Part shown: positions 12,258 to 63,064 of the stretch, piece after piece
How the letters are laid out: each line of letters opens with the position of its first letter
How positions within the stretch are numbered: the first letter of the stretch is position 1
DNA from: a virus
Virus record (IMG/VR): IMGVR_UViG_3300017613_000793
Span: 1 to 64,000 of that record
Length of the DNA stretch: 64,000 bases
Direction: 5' to 3' (one strand)
Translations under genes and position numbers: made by a program
The notes under the pieces: model-generated
What the model was told of the DNA's origin: nothing
Seen by the model: only the letters and a program-made list of their open reading frames with translations
The model's database searches: none

Positions 12258-13391
12258 CTAATCCGCTTTGTTCTTTATCTTGGCAAGCTTGGCCTTGAGT
12301 CCTGTCAGCTTCTCATCAGTCTCTTTAACCTTTTTTGCCTGTGGCTCTGGAGCTTTTTCCTTCTCAGGTTCAGGTTCCTTTGTGGCAGTTTCCGGCACTG
12401 TTGTTGTTACAGGTTCTGCCGGAGTTTCAACCTTTGGTTTGGCCTTATTCTTTTCCTGCTTTGGTGGTTTGGTATCCAGGTCTTCTTTACCGTCCTTTAC
12501 TTCTTCAGCTTCCTGCTTGTCCTTCTCCAGCTTCCGTTGCTCTGCCCAATGTTCCTTCAGCATCTCACGCATCTCTTCACGCTCTTTACGACTTCCAAAA
12601 GTTTTGATGTGTGCAACTTCTTCATCAACTCTGTAGGATACGTTCTCCTGATTGTTAGGATTCAATGGGGTAATCTGTTCAACCCACTGCTCAAGCTGTT
12701 CCTGGGTTCCCAACTCCACATAGTCTGTTGGAACTGCATTGTATTGATTCATGGGTAATTGGTTCTTATCATAAATCACAATGATGTCCCTGCCCGGTTT
12801 AGTAATTTTTCCGTTCTCATCAAAATCATCAAAAATATCTGAAGACCGTCCACGGCTTGAAACTATGCTGATGATTTTAGTCCACAAAGAAATGGGTGAT
12901 TGAAACAACTTCACAGTGTCATCAATAACACGCTCTGTCTTTCCCTCTTTATGATAGGTGGTGTACTTCACACCTAACACATTAAAAATACCACGTCTCT
13001 GTGGTCTGTAGAAATTGGCTTTTTCCATAAGTTGCTTCCTGGCTTCCTTACCGGATTCAGCCTTAGCAATCTCAAGCCGTCTTTCATACTCTTCACATCC
13101 TGCACACTTCTCACCATACACAATCTTCATGCAGGTGTACTGTTCAAAGTCGGTAGGTCCATATCTCAGGAAATGTCGTGCTGTAGTAATGTTGTACTCA
13201 GCATCTTCCTGAGTTGCAGGTAGAATCCTGATACCAACTTCTTCAGTTATAGTATCATCATTCCGTAAATCTTCCTTGGCGATTGCCTTCCAAAATCTAC
13301 TTGTAAAATCTTGTCCTCTGCTTTGTCTTTCCTTTTCAACTTCCAATAGTTCTCGGTCTCTGTCAAGGTTTGGTTTTGTAAATAAACTCAT
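12258..13391 (-). CDS. gp32-like single-stranded DNA-binding protein
   Basis: 377 residues. The N-terminal part resembles T4 gp32 (LAST-like basic start, a core with CMK...GEKCAGCEEYERRLE supplying cysteines for a zinc site near residues 86-97, then an OB-type region with IIVIYDKNQLP). The C-terminal 100 residues are low complexity, rich in Lys, Glu and Pro with an alternating pattern. The tail is less purely acidic than in gp32. The protein should coat ssDNA and interact with the polymerase and recombinase encoded next to it. Confidence 0.85.
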   Translation of the reverse strand: MSLFTKPNLDRDRELLEVEKERQSRGQDFTSRFWKAIAKEDLRNDDTITEEVGIRILPATQEDAEYNITTARHFLRYGPTDFEQYTCMKIVYGEKCAGCEEYERRLEIAKAESGKEARKQLMEKANFYRPQRRGIFNVLGVKYTTYHKEGKTERVIDDTVKLFQSPISLWTKIISIVSSRGRSSDIFDDFDENGKITKPGRDIIVIYDKNQLPMNQYNAVPTDYVELGTQEQLEQWVEQITPLNPNNQENVSYRVDEEVAHIKTFGSRKEREEMREMLKEHWAEQRKLEKDKQEAEEVKDGKEDLDTKPPKQEKNKAKPKVETPAEPVTTTVPETATKEPEPEKEKAPEPQAKKVKETDEKLTGLKAKLAKIKNKAD

Positions 13392-13903: not shown

Positions 13904-13933
13904 ATAATACTCTAAAAAATATATTTATGTCAA
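13904..13933 (-). promoter_or_regulatory. Promoter for the recombination operon
   Basis: On the minus strand TTGACA (13928-13933) and TATTAT (13904-13909) are 18 bases apart. The -35 element overlaps the TGA stop of the DNA polymerase gene. The start of the UvsY-like gene follows about 20 bases after the -10. It would drive the UvsY-like, ssDNA-binding, recombinase and downstream genes. Confidence 0.78.
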
Positions 13934-16338
13934 GCACTTATTTCTTTTAATTTTCCCCAGTGGGTTCCAACAGCAAGGTCCACCACAAGTGGCACACCCA
14001 ACATCCAATCATATGTGATTGCTTCCAAAATCCTCTTGCCAATTCTTTTAAGTTCATCAAGCTCATCTTCATAACAATCAATACCTATAGAGTCATGGAC
14101 TTCCCAAATAAATTGAGACTTCATTCCACGGTTTCTAACCTCATGCCATAACCTTCCAAGCCCGGTCACAACAATATCACTAGCAGTTCCCTGGATAGGC
14201 ATGTTGATTGCTTCTCGCTTGACTTGATTCCTTTGGTTCTTAGTGACTGCTCTGCTCAAATTAAAATTTCTAATCCGTCCAAATGGCATATCAATATATC
14301 CAAACTCCTGAACATGATTCCACACCTTTTCCTGATACCGTGTTACTTTAACATGTGCCCGATAAAAATCCTGAATCCATTTCTCTGCAACCTTCTTTGG
14401 TTTGCCCAACTCTTCGGCTAAACTATAAGCTCCTGTGCCATACACAATAGAAAAATTAACAGTCTTGGCATGGACTCTCTGTTCCTTTTTAATAGAATCC
14501 GACTTATCAGAATTGTCACCATACATCTCAAACCTAGTTGACTCATGAATATCCCTACCATCAATAAAGTCCTGCATCATTGGTTTGTCCTCTGCCAACA
14601 TAGACAAAACCCTAAGCTCCAATTGTGAGTAGTCAAATTCCAAAAACACTCCATACTTGGATTTAAACACTGGCCTTGTATCATAAGGAATGTTCTGGAA
14701 GTTTGGATTGAATGAACTCAGCCGTCCTGTTGCTGTTGTTATAAAGGAATAGTCTGCATGTATCCTACCTTCCTTTTGTTTCTCAACATATGGTTTCAAA
14801 TAAGTTCCCAACACCTTATCCTTCTTCCTGAACTCTATCATGTCTTTAATCAGTCCGTGCTTATTCTTTACCTTACCCAGTGCTTTCTCATCCGTCTGCA
14901 TCTGACCTGTCTTTGGAGTGTAAACACCTGTGGTGATTCCCATAAGTTCAAACACTCTGCCCACCTGCAACGGAGAATTAAAATTAACTATCTTCTTACT
15001 TGCTTCCTCAATCTGTTTTATCTTTGGGTAAGAATGCATCTGGGCTTCCAACACCGTCAACTCGTCCACATATTTATCTGTAGTCTCTGTCAAAATCTCC
15101 TGGTCCAAAAGAACACCTTCATGCTCCATCTCAGCCACTGCCATGAGTCCTGGTGCAATAGTCCAAGCCATCAATGCTCTCTGTGCATCATCAAAGTATG
15201 GTTTGTTCACAAACATTTGACACAGCTTGTATGTCATATAGGTATCCATAGCATTATAGTTTGCCAACTTATCCAGGTCCATACCTGCAAGGTTATCCCG
15301 GTCAACATCATACCCACCTTCATGGGTATACTTCCAGGCCATTCCTTTTAATGTATGTGGGATGAACTTCCCAACCAACAGGTAGTGTGCAACCATGGTA
15401 TCAAACCAAAGGTTCTTCACAATGATTCCGTTCTGTCTCAAAAATTTAATATCAAACTTTGCATTCTGTGCAATAGTTCTAAAATGTGTATCAGTGAACA
15501 ACACCTCAATTTGCTTCAACACCCATGGAACCTTATCCTTAAATGGACTATCCTTATGCCCCAATGGTATCACCCAATTTCTATCCTTGGTGCTAAATGC
15601 AATTGATAAAATCTTGTCTTCCTTCCAGTCCAATCCTGTGGTCTCAATATCAAACGCAAGGTCACAATATTTATTGTCTGCCATTCCCAAAAGCTCTGTC
15701 AGCATCAACTCCAAATCATCCACAGTGTCAACTAATACCTTGACAACCTCATGCCTATTGTCAAGGTATGCCTTGACTTTTGAAAGGTCTTCCAAGAATC
15801 CATCTTCTCTCCTGGTGTCTTGATTCTTTAATATATACCCTGGATGATATGTCACAAAAAAATGTTTACCATCCTTATTAAATCCATATCCTACAGAGTT
15901 GAAAAATGCCTTCTTCCCAAGGACCGCTTCCAATGCTGTAGCTCCAAGCAGAACCACAAGGTCTCCACCAAAATCAGCAATCTCTTCCTTCAAATACTTC
16001 TTACAGTTCTGGACTTCCTTCTTACTTGGTGCTCTGTTATTTGGTGGACGGCACTTACACACATTGGTGTAAACCACATCCTCAGGCTCAAGCTCCAGGA
16101 CTTTGACTATGTTCCTAAGGTATTGACCCGACTCATCTTTGGAATCACCTGGGACATCTCCCACAAACAACACACATGCATCCTTCAGTGCACCATAGTA
16201 TGGAACCTGAGTTATACCACGGAGTGTACAGTCATCACACGAAGTCTTCTTGGATTTCTTCTTTGGGATTGCCACGGTCACCTTGGTGGATTCCAACTCC
16301 TTGATTGTGCTTCCTAGCAGGTCATCAATTTCACTCAT
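13930..16338 (-). CDS. Family A DNA polymerase with N-terminal uracil-glycosylase-like domain
   Basis: 802 residues. Residues 30-190 form a family 4/5 uracil-DNA-glycosylase-like domain: GDVPGDSKDESG (60-71), NVCKCRPPNNR, and HPG at 165-167. C34, C37, C96 and C112 match the 4Fe-4S ligands in spacing. A DnaQ-type 3'-5' exonuclease follows (D230/E232, D296, D365), then the polymerase: motif A D569 in FLEFDYSQLE, motif B around K625/Y633, motif C H748-D749 in VHDS. SPO1-type phage polymerases are known to carry such a domain. The 5' nuclease is encoded separately. The glycosylase may be active or only bind uracil. Confidence 0.95.
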   Translation of the reverse strand: MSEIDDLLGSTIKELESTKVTVAIPKKKSKKTSCDDCTLRGITQVPYYGALKDACVLFVGDVPGDSKDESGQYLRNIVKVLELEPEDVVYTNVCKCRPPNNRAPSKKEVQNCKKYLKEEIADFGGDLVVLLGATALEAVLGKKAFFNSVGYGFNKDGKHFFVTYHPGYILKNQDTRREDGFLEDLSKVKAYLDNRHEVVKVLVDTVDDLELMLTELLGMADNKYCDLAFDIETTGLDWKEDKILSIAFSTKDRNWVIPLGHKDSPFKDKVPWVLKQIEVLFTDTHFRTIAQNAKFDIKFLRQNGIIVKNLWFDTMVAHYLLVGKFIPHTLKGMAWKYTHEGGYDVDRDNLAGMDLDKLANYNAMDTYMTYKLCQMFVNKPYFDDAQRALMAWTIAPGLMAVAEMEHEGVLLDQEILTETTDKYVDELTVLEAQMHSYPKIKQIEEASKKIVNFNSPLQVGRVFELMGITTGVYTPKTGQMQTDEKALGKVKNKHGLIKDMIEFRKKDKVLGTYLKPYVEKQKEGRIHADYSFITTATGRLSSFNPNFQNIPYDTRPVFKSKYGVFLEFDYSQLELRVLSMLAEDKPMMQDFIDGRDIHESTRFEMYGDNSDKSDSIKKEQRVHAKTVNFSIVYGTGAYSLAEELGKPKKVAEKWIQDFYRAHVKVTRYQEKVWNHVQEFGYIDMPFGRIRNFNLSRAVTKNQRNQVKREAINMPIQGTASDIVVTGLGRLWHEVRNRGMKSQFIWEVHDSIGIDCYEDELDELKRIGKRILEAITYDWMLGVPLVVDLAVGTHWGKLKEISA

Positions 16339-20806: not shown

Positions 20807-22195
20807 TTATGCATCCAAATAGCCTTCTCTTATATAAACTTCTATCCTACGTTCACTGTGTTGTTTTAAATATTTGCTGTTATCTAAGAAGTCATATGCC
20901 TTGAGAACACCACCATCTTTCTTCTTCCTTAACCCACGTCCTATCCTCTGGATAGTCTTCACATCTGACTTTCCACCGGACGCTGTAATGAGCACATTGA
21001 TTTCCGGGATGTCAATTCCTTCATCAAATATTCCTGAAGCAATCAGGATTCCTTTTCCTTCCAGGAACCACTGAACTGAATCATCTCTCTGGTCCATAGA
21101 ATTGGAACCATGAACAAATCTCACAGGCCAACCTTCCAGCATCCTTCTCAGGATTCCACCATGGTCAATCTGCCGGACCAGGATAAGCACCTTGTCACCT
21201 TTCTCATAATGACCTGTTGCAGTATTTACAATCATCTGGTTTCTTTGTTTACTATCCACAATACCTTCTCTATAAATCTCTTGCCAACGTGCTCCATAAA
21301 CCGTCTCATCATTGTCTAGTATGTCCATGATTATTGGACATAGGTCACCATCTTCAATTGCGTCCTCAGTCTTTCTCTTATATATAGTCTGTCCAACAAC
21401 TGCCATAAGCTTCATGGAATCAAGTTCTTCCCGGTCCATCGGAGTACCTGAGAATCCAAACCTGTAGAATGCATTGTGTGCCCACATCCCGGCTGTATAC
21501 CAAGTCTTTGCTGATGCATGATGACACTCATCAAACATAATAACCTGGAAGGTCTTCATGAAGTCACCAAATCTTTTTGTGCTCTGTTTCTTCATCTGGT
21601 CCAGTGATTGAACTGTAGCTATTGTCACTCTGGTTCCTGGAGCAAAAAGACTATCTCCAAAAACACCTATCTCATAAATGTTGGAATTAAGTCTAACAAT
21701 AAACCTGTCATGTGTTTGCCACATAAGAGACTTGCTGTTGACCATGATGAGCGTAGGAAGGTTCAGTGCCTTAGTGATTCCAATAGCAACCTCAGTCTTC
21801 CCGGTCCCGGTTGGCATATGGATGACACCACGGAAATTATTAACAGCATCAATAATTGCATCTAGCTGGTCTTGTCTCAATGTGATTCCATGTAAGAGGT
21901 CTTTGTGCACAGACCATATCCTTCCAGAGTCAATTAAATCTCTATCATAACCTCTCTCATCAACAATCTGAAAATCTGTGCCCTCTTCCCTAAAGTAACC
22001 TTCCACAATATGCAGAAGCCCTGTTGGAAATTTCCCTGTCATTATATCCAGGAAGTGAGTTTGACCATCCCACAACCCATCTTTGTATTTTGTGGAGTGC
22101 CAATACTTAGGCCACCAGCAAGACAACTTCTCTTCAAGCCCCAATGTGTAATTGCTCAACTGAGACTTAACGTTCCTGACTTTAATTGTAATCAT
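20807..22195 (-). CDS. UvsW-like SF2 DNA helicase
   Basis: 462 residues. A small N-domain (1-100) precedes the motor: Walker A MPTGTGKTEVA near 136, motif Ia, DECHH near 227, GFSGTP near 256, and motif VI with QRIGRGLRKKK near 425. T4 UvsW, of similar length and layout, drives branch migration and origin R-loop removal, helping the switch from origin- to recombination-dependent replication. ATGA overlap with the upstream methyltransferase-like gene. Confidence 0.9.
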   Translation of the reverse strand: MITIKVRNVKSQLSNYTLGLEEKLSCWWPKYWHSTKYKDGLWDGQTHFLDIMTGKFPTGLLHIVEGYFREEGTDFQIVDERGYDRDLIDSGRIWSVHKDLLHGITLRQDQLDAIIDAVNNFRGVIHMPTGTGKTEVAIGITKALNLPTLIMVNSKSLMWQTHDRFIVRLNSNIYEIGVFGDSLFAPGTRVTIATVQSLDQMKKQSTKRFGDFMKTFQVIMFDECHHASAKTWYTAGMWAHNAFYRFGFSGTPMDREELDSMKLMAVVGQTIYKRKTEDAIEDGDLCPIIMDILDNDETVYGARWQEIYREGIVDSKQRNQMIVNTATGHYEKGDKVLILVRQIDHGGILRRMLEGWPVRFVHGSNSMDQRDDSVQWFLEGKGILIASGIFDEGIDIPEINVLITASGGKSDVKTIQRIGRGLRKKKDGGVLKAYDFLDNSKYLKQHSERRIEVYIREGYLDA

Positions 22196-25384: not shown

Positions 25385-25557
25385 ATCTGCACCTTTATTT
25401 CTACATAGACTTGGTGCATATCATTGTAATGGGTACAGAAAGCCTTGAGTCCTTTTGCCCGGTGTGCATCTAACATGTCTTGAGCAAAGTGATTATCATT
25501 TGTTTCATAAACATACCGACATTCTACCCCGGCATACCATTTGTTTTCTCTCTTCAT
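25381..25557 (-). CDS. Small hypothetical protein
   Basis: 58 residues, ATG at 25557 with TAGGAGA upstream; overlaps both neighbours by ATGA. Mixed charge, three aromatic-rich beta-like strands. Function unknown. Confidence 0.6.
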   Translation of the reverse strand: MKRENKWYAGVECRYVYETNDNHFAQDMLDAHRAKGLKAFCTHYNDMHQVYVEIKVQI

Positions 25558-26030
25558 TTTTTGTCTCCTATATTATATTCTTTCCAAGTCTTGTCCCAAA
25601 CTTCCTGGAGAAGTCTACAATTATTCCTAAGTGACTTGCTTCTGGAAAGGACAACTCTTCTGACACTACCTCTTCTCTCTTCCATACCAAGAGTCCAACC
25701 ACTGGGTGAAGTCCAGGAACCAGGAAGTAGAGCCTTGAGTGAACTGTCAGTAGTACATTTCCAACTCATGGTCTCAGTCTTGGAAACAACTCTCTCAAGT
25801 CTAACACTCTTCCAAGCCCAAGGTCTGAGTGCAAGAGCAACAAGAGCACTGGAGAGATTCATATCAGTCAGCTTCAGTTCCCAAGTTCTGTTGTTCCATT
25901 CTTCCAGTTCCTGCTCACTACTCTTCTTAGGAAGAGCACTCATTTTGGCTTGGCTCTTCATCCATCTCTTCAGTTCCTTGCTAGGCTTGCTGAGACTTTT
26001 CTTACTCATCATCCTTGCTTGCTTATTCAT
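25554..26030 (-). CDS. Basic orphan protein with CpG-free gene
   Basis: 158 residues, strongly basic (Lys/Arg/Ser/Trp rich), no recognised domain. GAGG precedes the ATG at 26030 and the stop overlaps the next gene (ATGA), so it is likely real. The DNA between 25532 and 26051 has no CG dinucleotide, unlike its neighbours, and favours AAG, AGT, ACT and AGA codons. This may mean recent acquisition or selection on sequence. The last gene read before the gene-free region, it may need its own promoter (26046-26076). Confidence 0.65.
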   Translation of the reverse strand: MNKQARMMSKKSLSKPSKELKRWMKSQAKMSALPKKSSEQELEEWNNRTWELKLTDMNLSSALVALALRPWAWKSVRLERVVSKTETMSWKCTTDSSLKALLPGSWTSPSGWTLGMEERRGSVRRVVLSRSKSLRNNCRLLQEVWDKTWKEYNIGDKK

Positions 26031-26045
26031 AATTTACCTCTACTT

Positions 26046-26076
26046 ATAATACGACTCAACAGGGTATTTTATTCAA
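26046..26076 (-). promoter_or_regulatory. Possible weak promoter
   Basis: On the minus strand TTGAAT (26071-26076) and TATTAT (26046-26051) are 19 bases apart, just before the gene starting at 26030 and just after the terminal stem of the putative ncRNA. Confidence 0.35.
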
Positions 26077-26083
26077 TATTGCC

Positions 26084-26165
26084 AAAATAAAAATAGGTTA
26101 GGAATGCCGGAGACCTTGAGCGGTCTGGTTAGAAACATACTTTTTATTTGTGGCATTCCCAACCT
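26084..26165 (-). terminator. Strong terminal stem with U-rich tract
   Basis: GGCATTCC (plus 26152-26159) pairs with GGAATGCC (26101-26108), extended outward by AACCT/AGGTT with a one-base offset, and encloses a hairpin AGACC-TTGAGC-GGTCT. Read on the minus strand the outer stem is followed at once by ATTTTTATTTT (26084-26094). This would end the transcript of the gene-free region. Confidence 0.65.
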
Positions 26166-26212
26166 TTAAAAAAATATTTATAGGAGAAAATCAGAAAGCT
26201 TAAATATATTGC

Positions 26213-26290
26213 AGGGAGTGATGGGATTGGATACCCACAACCTTCCGGGTCTGATGCCGGATGCTCTACTAGCATTTGAGCTACACTCCC
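26213..26290 (-). tRNA. Aberrant tRNA or tRNA-like element
   Basis: A 7-base acceptor stem GGGAGTG/CACTCCC, D stem GCTC/GAGC, anticodon stem TCCGG/CCGGA and T stem are present. But the anticodon loop has eight bases (CATCAGAC), the T loop eight (TATCCAAT), the D loop lacks the GG pair, and no CCA is encoded. If the first U of the loop is position 33 the anticodon would be CAG (Leu) without a long variable arm. It may be decayed, a frameshifting tRNA or a structural part of the larger RNA. Confidence 0.55.
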
Positions 26291-26528
26291 TAATCAGCAC
26301 AAGGTCTTGTCTCATAAGACTCACCTGCACTGTCCATGGCTTGTAAAAATGTGAGGAAGAGCCGGAGGTGGAACCCTTCCCCACGGAGACAAAAAAATGA
26401 TTAACAAATTTTTTAAATTAAAATTACGGTCCGGGTGTCTTGCTCCCCAGTGAAGCAAGAATTTTTTCGTAGTGTTATACCCACCACCTGGATGTTCACC
26501 CGGCAAAAATTTATCAAAGGAGTTTACT

Positions 26529-26603
26529 ATGCAAAATTATATTGACACTGTGAGACTTGGACAGACAGTTGAACATTCAGTATTCAAGTCGGCTACTCGG
26601 TGA
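26529..26603 (+). CDS. Possible 24-residue ORF on the opposite strand
   Basis: AAAGGAG (26516-26522) lies six bases before an ATG that opens 24 codons (MQNYIDTVRLG...). It is the only plus-strand reading frame with a good ribosome site noticed in the window. No plus-strand promoter is seen, and the site falls inside the putative ncRNA, so chance is quite possible. Confidence 0.15.
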   Translation: MQNYIDTVRLGQTVEHSVFKSATR

Positions 26604-27049
26604 CAACGAACTTCACAGCCACTCTATGGCTCCATCCATTGGGCTTGGATAATGACTCCAGCCTTACCATACCTAGTTTCAACTTTTTGTAACCGGGACC
26701 ACCCGGACCTTGCTCACTCACCACAGGAATGCCCTAGACAACTTGTTCCAGAACAAACGGAGTATGTGTATCTTGTAGACAATCCAAGTATTTTCGTGTG
26801 AGAAGCCGTGGCTCCAATTCATGATATGGCCTTCTCATGGTCTTGTGGGTTGCTTACGCTGAAGCTTCATAGCAGTGACCCCTCACCACGTCTGCTTCCC
26901 CAACGTTCTTGTATCAGTCACAGCACCTCAGCTATGACCCTCACACGTCTCACAGCATCCAAACAAAGACAAGGTATTAAGCCCTGTCTGTGTTATCTAC
27001 TTATTAAGTTGTCAAAGAACTCAGTCACTCAATCCTGGTGACCATTATC

Positions 27050-27079
27050 AGTTTACCAAAAAACTATTTCTCTTGTCAA
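27050..27079 (-). promoter_or_regulatory. Promoter for the gene-free RNA region
   Basis: On the minus strand TTGACA (27074-27079), 18 bases, TAAACT (27050-27055), preceded by TGG. The -35 lies in the last codons of the sigma-like gene and the -10 includes its stop. Downstream comes a hairpin and then no gene for almost 1 kb. Confidence 0.65.
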
Positions 27080-27847
27080 GCACTTTTTTATAAAAGAACT
27101 AAATCTAAATCTATCTGTTGATTCTCTATTAATAGTAATGTCCCAATTCTTTTTTGGAACCATCTTCTTTACTTTCTTATAACACTTACTCTGACTCCAA
27201 TAATGAACTTCAACCTCTTCCATTTTAATTGATTCAGGTTCAAGTTCAGGTTCAACCCATTCTTCTTTTGGCCTTAATGTAATTTCCTTTTTATAACAGT
27301 TGTTTTGATTCCAATAATGAACCTCAACTTGTTCCATGGTCTCATCTAAATCCTGTGAAGGTTTTGATTTTGGTACAAACTTGTCTCTGATGTTTCGTAT
27401 TATCTGAGCAGTCCATCGTTGACTATACCCTAAAACTTTTCCAGCTTCCTCTGTGGACATACCATCAAACACAACCAACTGAACTAAACGCCTTTGCTTT
27501 GGTGTCAACTTGTCTAACAAGTTTTGTTTCTGTTGGAACAATTGTTTAAACTCAAATATATCCATAGGAGTTTTTTTATCTTGCGTATCTTTAAAAAATG
27601 CTTTCTCATGGTCCAACAATCTTCTTTGTTGGTATTTCCATCTAATATGGTCCACCACTGCCCGGTCTGCAATTGTGTAAGCATAAGTTTCAAGAGTGCT
27701 CCTACCCTCAAACTTATCCAACGCCTCAACCAATCTCACATATGCATCAGATATAACATCTTCAATAACTTGGTGTGGTCTACCTGCAAGTTTACCATAA
27801 ATATGCCCACGCATTTTCTGTAGAACCTTATCTGAAATTTCAAACAT
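27053..27847 (-). CDS. Sigma-70-family-like factor with duplicated C-terminal motif
   Basis: 264 residues from ATG 27847 (AAGG seven bases upstream; ATG 27853 is an alternative). Region 2 is seen at about residues 22-80 (VISDAYVRLVEALDKF...TLETYAYTIADRAVVDHIR) and region 4 at about 110-160 (LTPKQRRLVQLVVFDGMSTEEAGKVLGYSQ). The tail holds two copies of a 27-residue unit, VEVHYWxQxxCYKK...PKxxW, not found in sigma factors I know. It may direct late transcription, since no host-like promoter is found in the structural region. Confidence 0.8.
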   Translation of the reverse strand: MFEISDKVLQKMRGHIYGKLAGRPHQVIEDVISDAYVRLVEALDKFEGRSTLETYAYTIADRAVVDHIRWKYQQRRLLDHEKAFFKDTQDKKTPMDIFEFKQLFQQKQNLLDKLTPKQRRLVQLVVFDGMSTEEAGKVLGYSQRWTAQIIRNIRDKFVPKSKPSQDLDETMEQVEVHYWNQNNCYKKEITLRPKEEWVEPELEPESIKMEEVEVHYWSQSKCYKKVKKMVPKKNWDITINRESTDRFRFSSFIKKCLTREIVFW

Positions 27848-27868
27848 ACTCATGCCTTGAAATTTTTT

Positions 27869-27944
27869 TGGAGCGTCCTGTCAGATTTGAACTGACACCC
27901 TCAGGTTGGAAGCCTGGAATGCTACCGTTAAACACCAAGGACGC
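27869..27944 (-). tRNA. tRNA-Gly (TCC)
   Basis: Acceptor GCGTCCT/AGGACGC, anticodon loop CTTCCAA, T loop TTCAAAT, encoded CCA. The top pair of the anticodon stem is a C-A mismatch and the D arm is weak, but the overall cloverleaf is clear. It reads GGA (and perhaps other GGN). Last tRNA of the cluster, 16 bases before the sigma-like gene. Confidence 0.9.
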
Positions 27945-27945
27945 T

Positions 27946-28019
27946 TGGCACTGACTGTGGGATTTGAACCCCTTCTCCCGGTAGACAGCCGGGTGTGTTA
28001 CCATTACACTACAGCCAGT
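27946..28019 (-). tRNA. tRNA-Asp (GTC)
   Basis: Acceptor ACTGGCT/AGTCAGT with one G-T pair, anticodon stem CCCGG/CCGGG with loop CTGTCTA, discriminator G as expected for aspartate, encoded CCA. The T stem has two mismatches and three bases instead of two join acceptor and D stem, so it is somewhat degenerate. Confidence 0.82.
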
Positions 28020-28022
28020 GTT

Positions 28023-28098
28023 TGGCAGGTCCGTCTGGATTTGAACCAGAGGCCACGGTTTTGGAGACCGTGATGTTAAGCCACTACACCACAGACCT
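28023..28098 (-). tRNA. tRNA-Trp (CCA)
   Basis: Acceptor AGGTCTG/CGGACCT, anticodon loop CTCCAAA, T arm TCTGG-TTCAAAT-CCAGA, discriminator G and encoded CCA. A complete cloverleaf. Confidence 0.95.
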
Positions 28099-28101
28099 GT
28101 G

Positions 28102-28174
28102 CGGAGCATAGGGGAATTGAACCCACTAATACAAGGTTGAAAGCCTTGTGTCCTAACCATTAGACTAATGCTCC
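28102..28174 (-). tRNA. tRNA-Glu (TTC)
   Basis: Acceptor GGAGCAT/ATGCTCC, anticodon stem CAAGG/CCTTG with loop CTTTCAA, discriminator G. CCA is not encoded, unlike in its neighbours. Confidence 0.95.
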
Positions 28175-28175
28175 A

Positions 28176-28252
28176 TGGTGGAGACGGTGGGACTTGAACC
28201 CACAACTTCCTGCTTGCAAAGCAGGTGCTCTCCCAAATTGAGCTACATCCCC
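28176..28252 (-). tRNA. tRNA-Ala (TGC)
   Basis: Acceptor GGGGATG/CGTCTCC (two G-T pairs), anticodon stem CCTGC/GCAGG with loop TTTGCAA, discriminator A and encoded CCA. The G3-U70 identity pair for alanine is present (third pair is G-T). Confidence 0.95.
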
Positions 28253-28263
28253 AAAAATATTAT

Positions 28264-28338
28264 TGGAGGGTTGGAGTGGATTTGAACCACAATCTTCCGA
28301 GTTCACAGCCCGGTGCTCTACCTTTGAACTACCAACCC
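28264..28338 (-). tRNA. tRNA-His (GTG)
   Basis: Acceptor GGGTTGG/CCAACCC, anticodon loop CTGTGAA, T loop TTCAAAT, encoded CCA. The base before position 1 is T and the discriminator is T, so the usual histidine identity pair G(-1):C73 is not encoded. Confidence 0.93.
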
Positions 28339-28340
28339 AT

Positions 28341-28416
28341 TGGTGGGAAAGACAAGACTTGAACTTGCAACCCCTGGCTCCCAAAGCCAGTGCTCTACCA
28401 ATTGAGCCACTTTCCC
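28341..28416 (-). tRNA. tRNA-Pro (TGG)
   Basis: Acceptor GGGAAAG/CTTTCCC, anticodon stem CTGGC/GCCAG with loop TTTGGGA, discriminator A, encoded CCA. A complete cloverleaf. Confidence 0.95.
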
Positions 28417-28419
28417 TGT

Positions 28420-28494
28420 TGGCTGTGGTGGATAGATTTGAACTATCAACACCCTGTTTAACAGACAGGTGCTCTACCATTGAGCTACACCACA
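28420..28494 (-). tRNA. tRNA-Asn (GTT)
   Basis: Acceptor TGTGGTG/CACCACA, anticodon stem CCTGT/ACAGG with loop CTGTTAA, T arm GATAG-TTCAAAT-CTATC, discriminator G, encoded CCA. First tRNA of the cluster, about 60 bases after the promoter at 28562. Confidence 0.95.
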
Positions 28495-28974: not shown

Positions 28975-29487
28975 TTAGCTACCTTGTTTTTCCAACTTCT
29001 CAATAACTTCCATCTTGTCAAAAAGCAGTACCTTCAATTCCTGGATTCTGGATGTTAATTTAGCAACCCTCTTTGATGTGATATTCAACTTGGCGTTCTT
29101 TTCATTATACTCTTCCTGGCAGTTGTGTAACTCTTCCCGGAGTTCTGTCTTCTCTAACTGCAACCGCTCCACATCCTTCTCCACCAAATTCAGCCTTTCA
29201 AGTCCCACAGTCGTTGCTTCAAGCTTCTTACTGATGTCGTCTACAGCCTTTTGTAAATCTTTCTTTATCCGGGTCTCATCTTCTAACCTACTTTCCAAGC
29301 TCCTGATTTTACCACGACTTTCTTCATGTCCATAAATGATTTGACGTATGTCCGGTCCAAGGTCATCCAGAATCTGACGCTCAACATAGTGCATCATGTT
29401 TCCAAACATGTTATCCAGATAACCCCCCTTTTCAATCCGGCCTAAGAACAACTTAAATTGTTTAATCTCTTCCGCTTTACTTTTCAT
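28975..29487 (-). CDS. Coiled-coil protein
   Basis: 170 residues from ATG 29487, chosen for the AAAGGAG six bases upstream; an in-frame extension to 29559 lacks a site. Residues 55-168 are an almost unbroken heptad coiled coil (SLESRLEDETRIKKDLQKAV, ...). No catalytic motif. It may be a structural or adaptor protein made before the tRNA operon. Confidence 0.7.
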   Translation of the reverse strand: MKSKAEEIKQFKLFLGRIEKGGYLDNMFGNMMHYVERQILDDLGPDIRQIIYGHEESRGKIRSLESRLEDETRIKKDLQKAVDDISKKLEATTVGLERLNLVEKDVERLQLEKTELREELHNCQEEYNEKNAKLNITSKRVAKLTSRIQELKVLLFDKMEVIEKLEKQGS

Positions 29488-29497
29488 TTTTTCTCCT

Positions 29498-29671
29498 TTA
29501 ATATAATTCGTTACCAACCAATTTCCAAACATAAAAAGTGTTGTCATGAATCCTGACATCCCTCACGCCCTCTTTCATCAAATCATACTGCTCACACAAG
29601 AATGTCAGACTTGCTTCATCACCATAAATCTTTTTCCACTTTTTAACAAACTTAACTTTACTACCCTTCAT
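29498..29671 (-). CDS. Small hypothetical protein
   Basis: 57 residues, basic at the start (KVKFVKKWKKIYG) and beta-like at the end (VRDVRIHDNTFYVWKLV). AGGAG precedes the ATG at 29671. Function unknown. Confidence 0.6.
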   Translation of the reverse strand: MKGSKVKFVKKWKKIYGDEASLTFLCEQYDLMKEGVRDVRIHDNTFYVWKLVGNELY

Positions 29672-31438: not shown

Positions 31439-31468
31439 ATATTACCAGAGGTGAGAATATTCTGTCAA
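31439..31468 (-). promoter_or_regulatory. Extended -10 promoter of the accessory operon
   Basis: On the minus strand TTGACA (31463-31468), 18 bases, TAATAT (31439-31444), with TGG before the -10. A palindrome CTGGT-AC-ACCAG at 31484-31495 lies just upstream and may bind a regulator. It drives genes from 31421 leftwards. Confidence 0.8.
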
Positions 31469-55119: not shown

Positions 55120-55761
55120 CTAATCCTTTCTTACACACACCCACAACTCACGCCTCTTTCCGTATATAGCAACTTTCTTCACAGGCTTAAACCCAAACCT
55201 ATCCAGTGCTTGATTCAACCAACCTTCTGATGGAATAACATTTATCCAACTTCTGTGCTCTTCCCTGATTCCAATACCTAACTTACCAACATCAACCCAC
55301 ATTTCCAAAACCAAAAGCTGTTTAGTGATGTCACAGATGTCTTTCAATTGCCGTCCATATCTAAACATTGGAAAGTGATGAATTACACCTAAACACAATG
55401 TAATATCAAAGCCACCCCACAATGCTTCAAATGTCTGTCCACTTGTCTCCAGAAAGTCTATCTTTTCAAACCATAATTTATCATCTAAAATGCCCAACTG
55501 TTCTTTGGCTTTCTCTGCAACTTCCAACAGCCATTGCACATTGTCAATCCCCACAACAAACTCTGCTCCAAGCTCCACTGCTTCTATAGCTCCATAACCT
55601 TCTGATGTTCCAATATCCAGAACTTTTTTTCCTTCAAAATTTACATACTTCTCAATGATGTCCCACTTCTGTGTAGCATTCTTATGTTGTTCATTCATAA
55701 TAGGATATGGCTCACCACGGACCCCATTCCTTATTGGTTCAAATATTTTTGTGTGTCTCAT
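55120..55761 (-). CDS. SAM-dependent methyltransferase
   Basis: 213 residues from ATG 55761, overlapping the previous stop; upstream ATG 55779 is in frame. VLDIGTSEGYGAIEA is motif I, VVGIDN motif II, DITLCLGVIHH motif IV. Class I fold, substrate likely a sugar given its neighbours. Confidence 0.82.
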   Translation of the reverse strand: MRHTKIFEPIRNGVRGEPYPIMNEQHKNATQKWDIIEKYVNFEGKKVLDIGTSEGYGAIEAVELGAEFVVGIDNVQWLLEVAEKAKEQLGILDDKLWFEKIDFLETSGQTFEALWGGFDITLCLGVIHHFPMFRYGRQLKDICDITKQLLVLEMWVDVGKLGIGIREEHRSWINVIPSEGWLNQALDRFGFKPVKKVAIYGKRRELWVCVRKD

Positions 55762-56531
55762 TCTTCCCCTCTTGTACATAGTATATTTCTAAATGGCAAC
55801 CCTTGCTCTTTGTATTCAATCACCCAATCTAAGTTGTCATCTGTAATCAATCCAAGTGTTTTGGTTCCATGTAGAATCATCCACACATCAAAACCAAACT
55901 CCCTCAACATATTATAGAAGTCCTTTAAGTCATAATTTGCATTGTCAAAATTCTCTTGTGAGAACTCTGCCATAACTACAACATCCGGGTTATCTTCAAT
56001 GACTCTCTGCATACCCAACAACACCATAACCTCATTGCCCTCTGTGTCTATCTTTACAAAATCAACCCGGTCACCTGATTCAAAGTAGCTGTCCAAGCTG
56101 ACCTGTTGTACATTCTGAAAGCTTGTTGTTTCACCTATCTCAAACAAGCTGTGGTGTCCACCATTGTTTCCAGTCAAATGTAGCTTAACAAGTTCAGACT
56201 CAGCATTGCTTACTGCCCTACGCTCAATTTTTGTATTGGTCAGATTGTTAAGTGCAACGTTCTGCCCAAGGTATAAAAAGTTGTGTGTCTCAGGTTCAAA
56301 TGCAACTACCTGTCCTTCCTGTCCAACCCAATGTGACATCAGCAAAGTCCAATATCCAATGTGTGCTCCAACATCAACTGCAACATGCCCACGCTCTACA
56401 AATCTCTGACACACTATTGACTCTATTGGTTCCCACACACCATGCTTCCAAAGCCTTTTGGATAATACATCCTCATTGCTCTGCAACCACATATCAAACT
56501 TACCTATTCTTTTCTGTCTTTCAAACTCCAC
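55758..56531 (-). CDS. FkbM-family methyltransferase
   Basis: 257 residues from GTG 56531 (GGAG seven bases upstream). AVDVGAHIGYWTLLMSH is motif I, VVAFEPE motif II, and VDFVKIDTEGNEVMVL is the FkbM signature. The family O-methylates glycans and natural products. Confidence 0.92.
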   Translation of the reverse strand: MEFERQKRIGKFDMWLQSNEDVLSKRLWKHGVWEPIESIVCQRFVERGHVAVDVGAHIGYWTLLMSHWVGQEGQVVAFEPETHNFLYLGQNVALNNLTNTKIERRAVSNAESELVKLHLTGNNGGHHSLFEIGETTSFQNVQQVSLDSYFESGDRVDFVKIDTEGNEVMVLLGMQRVIEDNPDVVVMAEFSQENFDNANYDLKDFYNMLREFGFDVWMILHGTKTLGLITDDNLDWVIEYKEQGLPFRNILCTRGEE

Positions 56532-59108: not shown

Positions 59109-59290
59109 TCTTTCTCCCATTTATATGGTGGTAATTGTTCTTCATCCATATTGTATTTTTTGGTTGTCCGGCAAATCATACACCGCTTAAATCCCATACG
59201 CCTTGTGTCACCCGGTATATTCTTACACGGTCCTTCATAATGCCCCCATTTACATTCACTATCACTTTGGTGTATCAATCTTGTTTCCAA
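59105..59290 (-). CDS. Small cysteine-rich protein
   Basis: 61 residues with CKWGHYEGPC and CMICRTTKKYN, a likely zinc site. It lies between the two glycosyltransferase genes and overlaps both. Function unknown. Confidence 0.6.
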   Translation of the reverse strand: METRLIHQSDSECKWGHYEGPCKNIPGDTRRMGFKRCMICRTTKKYNMDEEQLPPYKWEKE

Positions 59291-60294
59291 TACTTCATTA
59301 TTGAAGGTCTCAGAGCTTCATATACATCCTCTGATTTTACACTGGTAAAACAGGTAACTTTATTCTCACACTCAACCGCTCTTTCAAAACACGGCTTACA
59401 TTTTATCCACTCATTCAACTTCAGTGCTGTTACATCCGTCTTAAACAATGGATGTAAGCTCAACCGCTCTTCAGGTCTACTAGGACCAAGGACGGCTGTC
59501 AAAGGTGTTTTAGTAAAGTGTGAAACCCATACTGGTGAACTATCCATACTGATTACCATCTTTGCATCTTTTATAATGCTGAATAGCTCCGGGATAGTCT
59601 GATTCATAAATCTAAAATCTGCATCCCCTTCAAGGTCTATCTTCCCACCTATATATACAACATTTATATCCTCAAGGTTTAAGAAGTGGATTATGTCCTG
59701 CACCACGTGCTTTGGCAATCCCCTCTTCTCTGTATTTCCCATTCCTTGGAATACAATATACTTGTCAAACTTAACCGGGTTATCCGGGAAACCTATCAGT
59801 GGCATATGCCAATCTGGAGTGTATCCCCATTTCAACCCAACTGCTCTACTATAAATTTCAACCCTATGCATCTTCTGCATCTTAGGGTCATGATGGTCCT
59901 TTTCAACCACTTGGTCAAGCATTAAACCTGGGGTCTTCCTCAGCCTATTATGAGTATCAACTTCAATACCAAGTAGCTCTAATATTTCCTTATACTGTGG
60001 GAGCGTCCTGATATATGGACTGTACCCCAACGAACTAATTTGTCTGAGCACTGGAACCAACATTAACGTGTCGCCCAATGAAAACGTTCTCTCAAGATAG
60101 AATCTATGCGTATCTGCTTCGTCCATCTCTTTTATAAATGGATGCTTCAATTTGGTGAGCACTCCATGGTATCCACCATTCAATAAGCTCACATCTACAA
60201 AAGCATCAGGAGCAACTGTTACTGAACCGCTTGCTCTACGGTACGAAAAAATCTGATTAATACCTGTCTTATTTGTTTGGAATAAATCCCACAT
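59275..60294 (-). CDS. GT9-like glycosyltransferase
   Basis: 339 residues from ATG 60294; TTG 60315 with a closer ribosome site is possible. LERTFSLGDTLMLVPVLRQISS is the N-terminal GT9 motif; IVFQGMGNTEKRGLPKHV, VYIGGKID, KMVISMDSSPVWVSHFTKTPLTAVLG and PEERLSL are the C-terminal donor-site elements. Late cysteines (CKPCFERAVECENKVTC) form the cluster typical of heptosyltransferase ends. First gene of the cassette after the capsid terminator. Confidence 0.85.
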   Translation of the reverse strand: MWDLFQTNKTGINQIFSYRRASGSVTVAPDAFVDVSLLNGGYHGVLTKLKHPFIKEMDEADTHRFYLERTFSLGDTLMLVPVLRQISSLGYSPYIRTLPQYKEILELLGIEVDTHNRLRKTPGLMLDQVVEKDHHDPKMQKMHRVEIYSRAVGLKWGYTPDWHMPLIGFPDNPVKFDKYIVFQGMGNTEKRGLPKHVVQDIIHFLNLEDINVVYIGGKIDLEGDADFRFMNQTIPELFSIIKDAKMVISMDSSPVWVSHFTKTPLTAVLGPSRPEERLSLHPLFKTDVTALKLNEWIKCKPCFERAVECENKVTCFTSVKSEDVYEALRPSIMKYWKQD

Positions 60295-60347
60295 CTTTTT
60301 TTGTCTTCTCCACAAGTTTCATTTCTTCCTTTTTAAAATAAATCTCA

Positions 60348-60374
60348 GTGGGACCGGAGATTGTCCAGTCCCAC
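60348..60374 (-). terminator. Hairpin after the major capsid gene
   Basis: GTGGGAC/GTCCCAC closes an inner GGA/TCC stem, and on the minus strand the arm is followed by TGAGATTTATTTT. It lies 25 bases after the capsid stop and would lower transcription into the modification cassette. Confidence 0.65.
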
Positions 60375-60398
60375 CAAGAGGGTATACCATATCAAGCG

Positions 60399-61604
60399 TT
60401 AGCTAGATGTGATAGTAACTGTTCCCAGTCCCAGGTTTCTGTCAGCCAGCGAACCTGCTTTTTCTTCAGGTATAATACCGAAGGCGTACCTTGTCATTGC
60501 ACCTTTGAAGAACTGAGTGAAGTCATCACCAACGATGTACTTAGGTGAGGTAAACAGTGGGATGTATGGAGCATAATAGCCACATGCATACTGCCAGTTG
60601 TCGCCCTTGAACCCAAGCAGAATCTTAGTTGCATCCGGGAAGTCCGGGTCTACGTAGCACTTAAACATGCCACCACCCAAAGTTCCAACATACCGTCTGC
60701 CCATAATGGACATGCTGTCCTGTGCCAGTGGGTCAGTGTTAAACTTCTCCAACTTACTCAGTCTCAGGTATGCATCAGGATGAACCACTATCCAATTAGC
60801 GTTCCGTCCTTTAACCTTAAAGATTTCATTGTTCACTTCAAGGATTTTGTCATACAGAGTTGCATCATACTCTTTCTGATGAAAGGTGTATTTCAGGTCT
60901 TCTGTGAGAGCACCATTGCTGTTCCAGTTGGCATTGTGTCCAACTCCTGCAAGCAGTGCTGTGATTATCTGATAGTCAACTTCCCTAACCACTTCTTCAA
61001 CAGTCTTTGGCATAAGTTCAGCTTCAAGGTTCAGCCCCCACTGGGAACGTAAATCCTGTTCAGCTTCAATTGTCCACTGACCCTTAATTTTCTTGGTCAC
61101 GGCTGTGATTGTATCAGATTCCAGAGAGTAATTAACCTCTCTGATTGTACCCTTTTCTCCAGAGTCTGCATAGGTAGCAGTTCGACCTTGGTCAAGCCTA
61201 TCACCTGCAGTTCTTCCGTCATACGTATTGCCAAACTTGTGGTCTATCCAATACAGGATACTTGATGGTCCGTTCATAGGTTGAACAGATACCAGTTCCA
61301 TAGCAATCAGCTTGGTATAAATACGTCTGATTGCAGGAAGTAACTGAGTCGTGAAGGTTGCAATGTCAGTTGACACTGTGTCTTCATGTAACATGCCGTC
61401 TTCCATCCGGTCAAGGTCTGGTCTCAGAGTGTTCCCTGATTCAGCCTTAATCCAGTTGATTGTATTGTCATACAGACGTTCTCTCAGCTTCGGATAATCC
61501 TGTCCTGTCCGTTCCCGGTCCAACAGTCCTTCAGCTTCATCAAGCTCAAGGTTTCGTCTCTTCTGGGCTTCCAGAAAAGAATTGAGTTTTTCTCTATTTA
61601 CCAT
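60399..61604 (-). CDS. Major capsid protein (T4 gp23-like, HK97 fold)
   Basis: 401 residues. Helical N-arm (1-60), then LLPAIRRIYTKLIAMELVSVQPMNGPSSILYWIDHKFG at 90-127, which is the E-loop/P-domain start of gp23-type capsid proteins, and late GGGMFKCYVDPDF, ILLGFKGDNWQYACGYYAPYIP and MTRYAFGII. Sits right after protease and scaffold. It may be cleaved by the protease in the N-arm. Confidence 0.93.
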   Translation of the reverse strand: MVNREKLNSFLEAQKRRNLELDEAEGLLDRERTGQDYPKLRERLYDNTINWIKAESGNTLRPDLDRMEDGMLHEDTVSTDIATFTTQLLPAIRRIYTKLIAMELVSVQPMNGPSSILYWIDHKFGNTYDGRTAGDRLDQGRTATYADSGEKGTIREVNYSLESDTITAVTKKIKGQWTIEAEQDLRSQWGLNLEAELMPKTVEEVVREVDYQIITALLAGVGHNANWNSNGALTEDLKYTFHQKEYDATLYDKILEVNNEIFKVKGRNANWIVVHPDAYLRLSKLEKFNTDPLAQDSMSIMGRRYVGTLGGGMFKCYVDPDFPDATKILLGFKGDNWQYACGYYAPYIPLFTSPKYIVGDDFTQFFKGAMTRYAFGIIPEEKAGSLADRNLGLGTVTITSS

Positions 61605-61621
61605 AGATATTTGTCCTCTTC

Positions 61622-62407
61622 TTAGGAGTTAAGATTTAGAACATCTGCTTTAAAAGCTTTGATGTCTTTCTTAAATCCCGCTTTCTTTGCTTCCGCAAAT
61701 TGAGTCTTGATTTTCTTTTCGGCCTCTTCTGCCGTCTCAGACTCTTCGTTTTTCACCGTGCCTACAGGCTCCAAACCAGATTCTACAATCCGATTCTTAA
61801 CACCCTCAGCAATGATGTTTGAAAACTTTTCCTTCAGCTTTGTAATCGCTTCAGGTAGAGTTTCTACATCACCATGGGTAATGTCTCCGTCCTCATTAAC
61901 AAGTTCACCCTCAATCATGGACTTGAACTTTACGTTCTCATCCTTCTCAAGTTCCTCATCAAGTTTGGTACGAAGTGTAGACTGTGCTTCCTCTTTGTCC
62001 TTAGCTTCCTGTTCAGCATTCTCACGGTCTGTGATACGCTTTTCCAGGTCAGCATTCTGGGCTTTCAAGTCAGCAATAGTCTGTGAAAGGTCTTCCTGCT
62101 TCTCTTTACCTTTTCCCTCATCAGGGCCTTCAGTTTTTTCTTCTTCAGGAATTACGCCTTCAAGTGATGTCAGCTCATTAATTGCATCACGGACACCTTC
62201 CACCATAGATTCATTAGACTTTTTAACAGCATCCACTGCAGAGTTAAGTTTTTCCTCAAGCTCTTTAGTCCATTCATCTTTAGCTTCAGATACCTTATCA
62301 GCAATCTGTTGCTCCATATCAGCTTTCTGAGCTTCTTCATGAGTCTTAAAAAGTTCCTCATGGTCTGCTCTCAGAGCTTCAATGTTTTCGTATTCTTTCT
62401 TGTCCAT
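61622..62407 (-). CDS. Nested scaffold protein (internal start)
   Basis: 261 residues in the same frame as the protease gene, from ATG 62407 (MDKKEYENIEAL) with GAGGAG just upstream. It contains only the coiled acidic domain. Lambda Nu3 is made in this way inside gene C, so a nested scaffold is likely. Confidence 0.6.
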   Translation of the reverse strand: MDKKEYENIEALRADHEELFKTHEEAQKADMEQQIADKVSEAKDEWTKELEEKLNSAVDAVKKSNESMVEGVRDAINELTSLEGVIPEEEKTEGPDEGKGKEKQEDLSQTIADLKAQNADLEKRITDRENAEQEAKDKEEAQSTLRTKLDEELEKDENVKFKSMIEGELVNEDGDITHGDVETLPEAITKLKEKFSNIIAEGVKNRIVESGLEPVGTVKNEESETAEEAEKKIKTQFAEAKKAGFKKDIKAFKADVLNLNS

Positions 62408-63064
62408 ATTCTCCTCTTTGGAATTTTGTGTTGAGTCGTCAGGGTTCTCATCCTGGGACTCTATAAACAAGTGTTTATTCTCTTGTATATAAGAAGTCAC
62501 AGCATCACTCATGCTGTCTTCCATAACCGCTCTCACTCTAGCATCAGGGACACTTGGTGTGAGCACAAAGTCACCCGGACTCAAGAGCCGGAAGTCTTTG
62601 TTTACTTCACTGTAGGTAGACATTTTTCCATTTACTCTACCACGCTTTTCAGTGACAGTTCCTGCCCCTCTTGAACTGACTCCAACACGACCATGCTTTA
62701 TAAGCACCATTGCATCTTTGCCTGTTCTTGTGGGAAGAACTGTACACTCACCATAACATTCCCCATTCTCATCCATCCAGATTTTATTCCAAATGTGGGA
62801 AACATCATTAATGTTTGCAACTCCGGTTGTAGGATGATATGATGCTCCATAGATTTCTCCATTAACCACCTGCTCCTGCAATCTGTCAATCTCTCTTTGT
62901 AGGAGTTCCTTTTGGTACAACCTACCATTACGATTAACAATATTACCGTGTTGCCATTTTACCTGCACTCTCATAGTCGGGTCTTTAGTATTTTCGTCTA
63001 AAGACTCTTCCAGAATCTGTGCATTGACGGCTTCAAATTCAAGCCGTGCAGGAAATTTTCTCAT
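61622..63064 (-). CDS. Prohead protease with scaffold domain
   Basis: 480 residues. Residues 1-195 form a gp21/S78-like protease: NIVNRNGRLYQKELL, H77 in YGASYHP, and S130/S131 in GRVGVSSRGAG as catalytic residues. Residues 200-480 are acidic and coiled (rich in E, K, D), the look of a scaffold or core protein. One polypeptide may deliver protease to the procapsid, as lambda gpC does. Confidence 0.88.
   Translation of the reverse strand: MRKFPARLEFEAVNAQILEESLDENTKDPTMRVQVKWQHGNIVNRNGRLYQKELLQREIDRLQEQVVNGEIYGASYHPTTGVANINDVSHIWNKIWMDENGECYGECTVLPTRTGKDAMVLIKHGRVGVSSRGAGTVTEKRGRVNGKMSTYSEVNKDFRLLSPGDFVLTPSVPDARVRAVMEDSMSDAVTSYIQENKHLFIESQDENPDDSTQNSKEENMDKKEYENIEALRADHEELFKTHEEAQKADMEQQIADKVSEAKDEWTKELEEKLNSAVDAVKKSNESMVEGVRDAINELTSLEGVIPEEEKTEGPDEGKGKEKQEDLSQTIADLKAQNADLEKRITDRENAEQEAKDKEEAQSTLRTKLDEELEKDENVKFKSMIEGELVNEDGDITHGDVETLPEAITKLKEKFSNIIAEGVKNRIVESGLEPVGTVKNEESETAEEAEKKIKTQFAEAKKAGFKKDIKAFKADVLNLNS

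What the first reader, a model, noticed from the sequence alone, without database searches (positions are those of the whole stretch)
26084..27055. Candidate large structured non-coding RNA beside the phage tRNA cluster
Almost 1 kb carries no credible gene, yet has a dedicated promoter (TTGACA-18-TAAACT with TGG), a hairpin at the very start of the transcript, at least eight further stem-loops with nested long-range pairs (e.g. CCGGGTG with CACCCGG enclosing TCTTGCT/AGCAAGA), an embedded tRNA-like fold, and a strong terminal stem followed by ATTTTTATTTT. Size, phage origin and position next to tRNAs match what is known of GOLLD and ROOL RNAs, which assemble into multimeric cages. It may be a new member or a new class.
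Basis: partly seen in the sequence, partly recalled or inferred. Interest (0 to 1): 0.85.

Follow-up and report, generated by a model that had tools for sequence, protein, structure and literature searches.

The report
Orphan large phage RNA with tRNA-like domain
A tailed phage appears to make a roughly 960-base structured RNA that codes for no protein, from its own promoter and with a degenerate tRNA fold built in; it matches no known RNA family and no relative was found, so it may be a new orphan class, but it has not been proven by comparison or experiment.

Summary
Window 26084-27043 (minus strand) has no credible gene and is the largest ORF-free stretch of the window. Its promoter belongs to a phage-specific motif (TTGACA-N15-TGG-TA) found 4 times in the window against 0.08 expected. 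It is the only one of seven strong minus-strand promoters checked that is not followed by a ribosome-binding site and ORF. The RNA folds better than all 160 shuffles and ends in a 14-bp stem plus a U tract. Four of 44 coding stretches fold at least as strongly, so folding alone proves little.

The 'tRNA-like fold' is a genuine tRNA-model match (44 bits, gathering score 29). All four stems are intact, but each loop is changed and the CCA end is absent.

It is not GOLLD: no match at E<=10, while the same model hits 4 of 50 other phage records at E<1e-46. No ROOL, OLE or HEARO match appeared, but ROOL had no positive control.

I found no homologue in any collection reached, so covariation could not be tested. 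Best reading: an orphan large phage ncRNA, resembling GOLLD/ROOL in size and setting, function unknown. A colinear relative carries a different, more convincingly folded ~800-nt orphan RNA.

The parts
27050..27079 (-). Promoter TTGACA-18-TAAACT with TGG before the -10; inferred start near 27043
   Evidence: motif TTGACA-N15-TGG-TA found 4 times in the window, 0.08 expected
26084..27043 (-). Inferred ~960-nt non-coding transcript
   Evidence: ORF-free, folds below 160 of 160 shuffles, minus strand folds better than plus (z -3.8 vs -1.9)
27024..27042 (-). 5' terminal hairpin, moderate confidence
   Evidence: mean pair probability 0.71
26962..26994 (-). 12-bp hairpin AACACAGACAGGG/CCTTGTCTTTGTT
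   Evidence: P 0.91
26544..26959 (-). Domain I: 416 nt closed by GATGCTGTGAGA/TCTCACAGTGTC, branching into 26947-26795 and 26788-26556
   Evidence: P 0.93; branches P 0.90 and 0.78
26401..26517 (-). Domain II: AT-rich 13-bp stem, CCGGGTG/CACCCGG, TCTTGCTTC/GGAGCAAGA and GTGGTG/CACTAC hairpins
   Evidence: P 0.82-0.98; covariance model R1 finds no second copy in 1.4 Mb of relatives and other phages
26351..26384 (-). 13-bp hairpin GTGGGGAAGGGTT/GGCTCTTCCTCAC followed by ATTTTTA (also scores as a terminator-like site)
   Evidence: P 0.95
26295..26332 (-). 10-bp hairpin CAGTGCAGGT/ACCTTGTGCTG with inner GTCT/AGAC
   Evidence: P 0.90
26213..26291 (-). Degenerate tRNA-like domain: all four stems intact; no GG in the D loop, 8-nt anticodon loop CATCAGAC, 8-nt T loop TATCCAAT, 3' end T-GCA instead of N-CCA
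   Evidence: Rfam tRNA 44.2 bits; alignment with the eight cluster tRNAs
26190..26255 (-). Possible pseudoknot: AUCAGA (26255-26250, anticodon-type loop) with UCUGAU (26195-26190, 3' linker)
   Evidence: the only WC loop-loop match of 6 nt or more in the MFE fold; about 0.2 expected by chance (own rough count), so a lead only
26084..26165 (-). Terminator-like 3' end: 14-bp stem AGGTTGGGAATGCC/GGCATTCCTAACCT with inner hairpin, then ATTTTTATTTT
   Evidence: P 0.99
27053..27853 (-). Upstream gene: sigma-70 family (ECF-like) factor
   Evidence: Pfam PF07638 1.3e-13, phrog_1740 1.6e-16
27869..28494 (-). tRNA cluster: Gly, Asp, Trp, Glu, Ala, His, Pro, Asn
25554..26030 (-). Downstream ORF of 158 aa, no relatives found, weak coding score (0.12 against a 0.47 mean)

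Best explanation
The phage makes a stand-alone, ~960-nt structured non-coding RNA from 27043 to about 26085 (-), using its own early/middle-type promoter set. The RNA folds into a 416-nt branched 5' domain, a compact central domain and several hairpins. A tRNA-derived domain follows, and a terminator stem ends it. Most likely it works the way large phage RNAs such as GOLLD, ROOL and the abundant ICP1 RNA are thought to: it accumulates during infection and acts through its own fold as a scaffold or particle. The tRNA-like part no longer translates; it serves as a structural or processing module, for example an RNase P cut at 26291/26292 that would release a ~750-nt 5' RNA, or docking to tRNA-binding machinery. 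Shown here: promoter family, absence of genes, folding beyond shuffles, tRNA-model match. Inferred: transcription, the mature ends, abundance and every functional step.
For: Promoter motif TTGACA-N15-TGG-TA 4 times, all on the coding strand, against 0.08 expected. Six of the seven strong minus-strand promoters checked lead directly to an RBS and ORF; this one does not. Only minus-strand gap of at least 250 nt free of ORFs of 45 aa or more in a gene-dense phage. 0 of 160 shuffles fold as well; the minus strand is favoured over the plus. Terminator-like 3' end. tRNA-model match over the gathering score with all stems kept and loops changed. GC 43.9% against 40.4% for the window. Precedents: ICP1's most abundant transcript, ~800 nt from a ~1-kb ORF-less space (PMC7567579); phage K lncRNAs placed by tRNA genes (PMC9241854); [quoted passage not shown]
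Against: No homologue in INPHARED phages, in ten related IMG/VR records, or in the limited pattern scans of IMG/VR and GTDB genomes. No covariation test was possible. Four coding stretches of the same window fold as strongly or more, and local folding is mostly average. No transcript data. The promoter's -10 (TAAACT) matches the consensus at only 4 of 6 positions. An orphan sequence with a degenerate tRNA could also be decaying DNA.
Confidence: 0.55

Rival explanations
1. Decaying DNA: a former tRNA and former genes beside the tRNA cluster, now drifting, with accidental structure and a leftover or fortuitous promoter.
For: Degenerate tRNA without CCA and with indels in all three loops; no homologue anywhere; folding no better than some coding stretches.
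Against: All tRNA stems remain paired. The promoter matches the phage's own motif and the end is terminator-like. GC is above, not below, the genome. No trace of a protein family in the read-through frames scanned. Phages of this group hold almost no other such gaps.
Confidence: 0.22
2. A highly diverged member of GOLLD or ROOL.
For: Size, phage origin, tRNA neighbourhood and embedded tRNA match descriptions of GOLLD (PMC12286853).
Against: No Rfam family but tRNA passes its threshold with permissive filters. GOLLD gives no match at E<=10 in this genome or its relatives while detecting 4 of 50 other phage records at E<1e-46. ROOL gives none, but without a positive control.
Confidence: 0.07
3. 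A long leader or 3' tail: regulatory untranslated region of the downstream 158-aa ORF, or read-through tail of the tRNA/sigma transcript.
For: All lie on the same strand; the ORF at 26030 starts only ~55 nt after the 3' end.
Against: A terminator-like stem with U tract lies between the RNA and that ORF; 960 nt is long for a leader; the region has its own promoter.
Confidence: 0.1
4. One or more short protein genes that the ORF filters miss, for example 26321-26506 (61 aa) or 26593-26724 (43 aa) on the minus strand, or the RBS-led 24-codon frame at 26530 (+).
For: 26593-26724 (-) has a dicodon score near 0, above antisense frames; AAAGGAG precedes ATG at 26530 (+).
Against: Scores are below the 5th percentile of the phage's coding windows; no family match; the ORFs are scattered in different frames and cross the strongest helices.
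Confidence: 0.06

Closest known systems
GOLLD RNA (Rfam RF02032)
   Same: Large phage RNA beside tRNA genes; tRNAs are sometimes present in its linker (PMC12286853), seen here in L188.
   Different: No covariance-model match at E<=10, while the model finds GOLLD in other phages at E<1e-46. GOLLD's conserved 3' region is not detected; here the tRNA-like part lies close to the 3' end.
ROOL RNA (Rfam RF03087)
   Same: Large phage/prophage RNA, often near tRNA islands (PMC12286853).
   Different: No model match; no positive control was available.
Abundant ~800-nt ncRNA of Vibrio phage ICP1
   Same: ~1-kb ORF-less gap holding a large transcript of unknown function (PMC7567579).
   Different: ICP1 has no tRNAs (same paper); no Vibrio phage appears among the weak blastn hits of this RNA.
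lncRNAs of staphylococcal phage K
   Same: Large RNAs placed by tRNA genes (PMC9241854).
   Different: No Staphylococcus phage appears among the weak blastn hits of this RNA.
Canonical phage tRNAs of the same cluster
   Same: tRNA fold, same strand, 1.6-2.3 kb away.
   Different: No GG in the D loop, 8-nt anticodon and T loops, T-GCA end instead of N-CCA.

Membership tests
GOLLD (RF02032) | Match to the 416-position covariance model (conserved 3' region), gathering score 150 bits | tested here: not met
   No match at E<=10; positive control 4 of 50 phage records at E<1e-46
GOLLD (RF02032) | Phage origin, next to tRNA genes | tested here: met
   Phage genes; eight tRNAs at 27869-28494
GOLLD (RF02032) | Assembly into a 14-mer cage | not testable with these tools
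   Needs cryo-EM or native gels
ROOL (RF03087) | Match to the 574-position covariance model | tested here: inconclusive
   No match, but no positive control rang
OLE / HEARO and other Rfam families | Covariance-model match | tested here: not met
   cmscan with permissive filters, E<=10: only tRNA above its gathering score; no family-specific positive control was run
Functional tRNA | Cloverleaf stems | tested here: met
   44.2 bits, all four stems paired
Functional tRNA | G18-G19 in the D loop, 7-nt anticodon loop, 7-nt TTC-type T loop, CCA as in most of the cluster's other tRNAs | tested here: not met
   not called by ARAGORN
Large structured phage ncRNA (general kind) | Own transcript without coding capacity | tested here: inconclusive
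   Promoter, terminator-like end and lack of ORF shown; transcription not tested
Large structured phage ncRNA (general kind) | Conserved structure supported by covariation | not testable with these tools
   No homologue found

The most novel reading that the evidence does not exclude
A previously undescribed class of large phage RNA that has absorbed a tRNA and remodelled its three loops, possibly so that the anticodon-type loop pairs with the RNA's own 3' linker. This phage lineage would carry several unrelated large structured RNAs, since the relative G009 has a different one.
Probability: 0.35. Interest if true: 0.75.

Novelty: new variant of a known kind. Interest (0 to 1): 0.5.

Why it matters
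Large phage RNAs such as GOLLD and ROOL assemble into RNA-only cages and have no known function. Each independent class with the same setting (phage, tRNA cluster, ~1 kb) gives another way to ask what the setting is for. An RNA in which a tRNA has been built in and remodelled would point to tRNA processing or the ribosome as the link. That can be tested by RNase P assays and by expressing the RNA in laboratory E. coli.

Tried and rejected
Homologues through the neighbouring proteins: none for sigma or the 158-aa ORF; the 415-aa neighbour gave only distant relatives. Capsid-based search gave ten related records, best 65%, without a matching RNA. At the nearest syntenic site examined, in G009, only small genes lie between the homologues of 28975-29559 and 20807-22195. 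Pattern scans with 16-mers from the tRNA-like part and from domain II: only hits without extended similarity. Read-through frame as a protein query: nothing. Capsid search in GTDB genomes: nothing. T4-type late promoter TATAAATA at 26182: 7 in the window against 2.8 expected, no consistent position before genes, rejected. Weak Rfam ar9 hit (20.6 bits, gathering 45) rejected as chance. A 26-nt A/T-rich match to relative G003 at 26165-26190 was dismissed because it is low-complexity sequence in another gene context.

Full report
What was checked. The window is part of a 69-kb IMG/VR virus record with phage genes: an A-family DNA polymerase with a uracil-DNA glycosylase domain, DnaB-type helicase, ribonucleotide reductase, tape measure, head protease and a sigma-70-family factor. 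Its capsid protein resembles T4-type capsids. Nearly all genes read on the minus strand. The finding lies downstream of eight tRNA genes and the sigma gene.

The observation. The stretch 26050-27052 is the largest gap without an ORF of 85 aa, and the only place on the coding strand with 250 nt or more free of ORFs of 45 aa. A dicodon score trained on the phage's own genes puts its frames below coding windows apart from a few short ones. Four of the six read-through frames were scanned and match no protein family beyond chance.

The promoter is the strongest single piece of evidence. TTGACA-N15-TGG-TA occurs at 31468, 27079, 20673 and 1322, all on the minus strand; shuffled sequence gives 0.08 on average and never more than 1. 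Of seven strong minus-strand promoters checked, six lead to a ribosome-binding site and an ORF within 120 nt; the one at 27079 does not. The seven were picked by eye from the 18 minus-strand sites listed, as those that lie just before genes or before this RNA, so the six-of-seven figure partly reflects that choice; the motif count does not.

Folding. The 960-nt minus-strand RNA folds at -302.8 kcal/mol; 160 dinucleotide shuffles average -274.3 and none reaches it. The minus strand is favoured over the plus (z -3.8 against -1.9). Against this, four of 44 other stretches of the window, all in coding regions, fold as strongly or more, local windows are mostly average, and the individual helices are not unusually long. 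Folding therefore supports but does not prove an RNA gene.

The tRNA-like domain. Rfam's tRNA model scores 26290-26213 at 44.2 bits, above its gathering score; it was not reported in the fast whole-window scan and ARAGORN misses it. Its stems are complete. Compared with the cluster's tRNAs, the D loop lacks GG, the anticodon loop has 8 nt (CATCAGAC), the T loop has 8 nt (TATCCAAT), and the 3' end reads T-GCA where most of the neighbours encode N-CCA. Read against a canonical tRNA, each loop looks like one with a small insertion; this is inference. The loop's AUCAGA is complementary to UCUGAU at 26195-26190, the only such loop-loop match of 6 nt or more in the predicted fold; by my own rough count about 0.2 are expected, so this is only a lead.

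Known families. With permissive filters no Rfam family other than tRNA passes its threshold. The GOLLD model gives nothing at E<=10 here or in nine related records, yet finds GOLLD in 4 of 50 other phage records at E<1e-46; in one of them (L188) a tRNA-Asn lies inside the GOLLD match. ROOL gave nothing, but no genome searched contained one, so that test lacks a control. Literature precedents for large phage RNAs outside these families are the ~800-nt ICP1 transcript (PMC7567579) and the phage K lncRNAs next to tRNA genes (PMC9241854).

Relatives. Distantly related records are broadly colinear, but none holds a similar RNA by blastn, and a covariance model of domain II, built from this one sequence and so of low power, finds only the window itself in 1.4 Mb. 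The pattern scans of IMG/VR and GTDB genomes that I could afford cover only a few short stretches of the RNA; diverged homologues could have been missed. Covariation remains untested, and the case for a new class stays open.

A side finding strengthens the general picture. Relative G009 carries, at another genomic position, an ORF-poor ~800-nt stretch (L116:640-1480) with its own TTGACA-type promoter. It has three domains closed by perfect helices of 13, 19 and 20 bp spanning 211-256 nt. Its fold z-score is -8 to -9.4, and it matches no Rfam family at E<1. It shares no sequence with the window's RNA.

Verdict. An orphan, probably transcribed, large structured phage RNA with a remodelled tRNA domain; not GOLLD; function unknown beyond analogy. 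The cage or scaffold mechanism and the RNase P processing step are inferences. The main rival is decaying DNA, and transcript mapping would separate the two.

Noticed in passing
L116:640-1480 (+), G009:C1 about 55639-56479 (IMGVR_UViG_3300018080_000131): Second orphan large structured RNA candidate in a colinear relative: own TTGACA-type promoter, three domains closed by 13-, 19- and 20-bp perfect helices spanning 211-256 nt, fold z -8 to -9.4, no Rfam match at E<1.
   Followed up: partly
window 31468, 27079, 20673, 1322 (-): Phage-specific promoter motif TTGACA-N15-TGG-TA, four copies against 0.08 expected.
   Followed up: yes
window 26047-26058 (+): TAATACGACTCA, identical to the first 12 nt of the T7 promoter and followed by ACAGGG; no T7-like RNA polymerase was noticed among the genes checked.
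   Followed up: no
window 13930-16338 (-): DNA polymerase A with an N-terminal uracil-DNA glycosylase domain fused on.
   Followed up: no
window 13141-13300 (-): Very strong local fold (z about -11, from 16 shuffles) inside the ORF 12258-13391.
   Followed up: no
L187, L188, L189, L190: GOLLD RNAs in four IMG/VR phage records of 113-457 kb; in L188 a tRNA-Asn (1565-1639) lies inside the GOLLD match (1501-1965).
   Followed up: partly
window 59275-63064 (-): T4-type capsid and head-protease genes in a record of only 69 kb; related records with capsid proteins 39-65% identical form a small group.
   Followed up: partly
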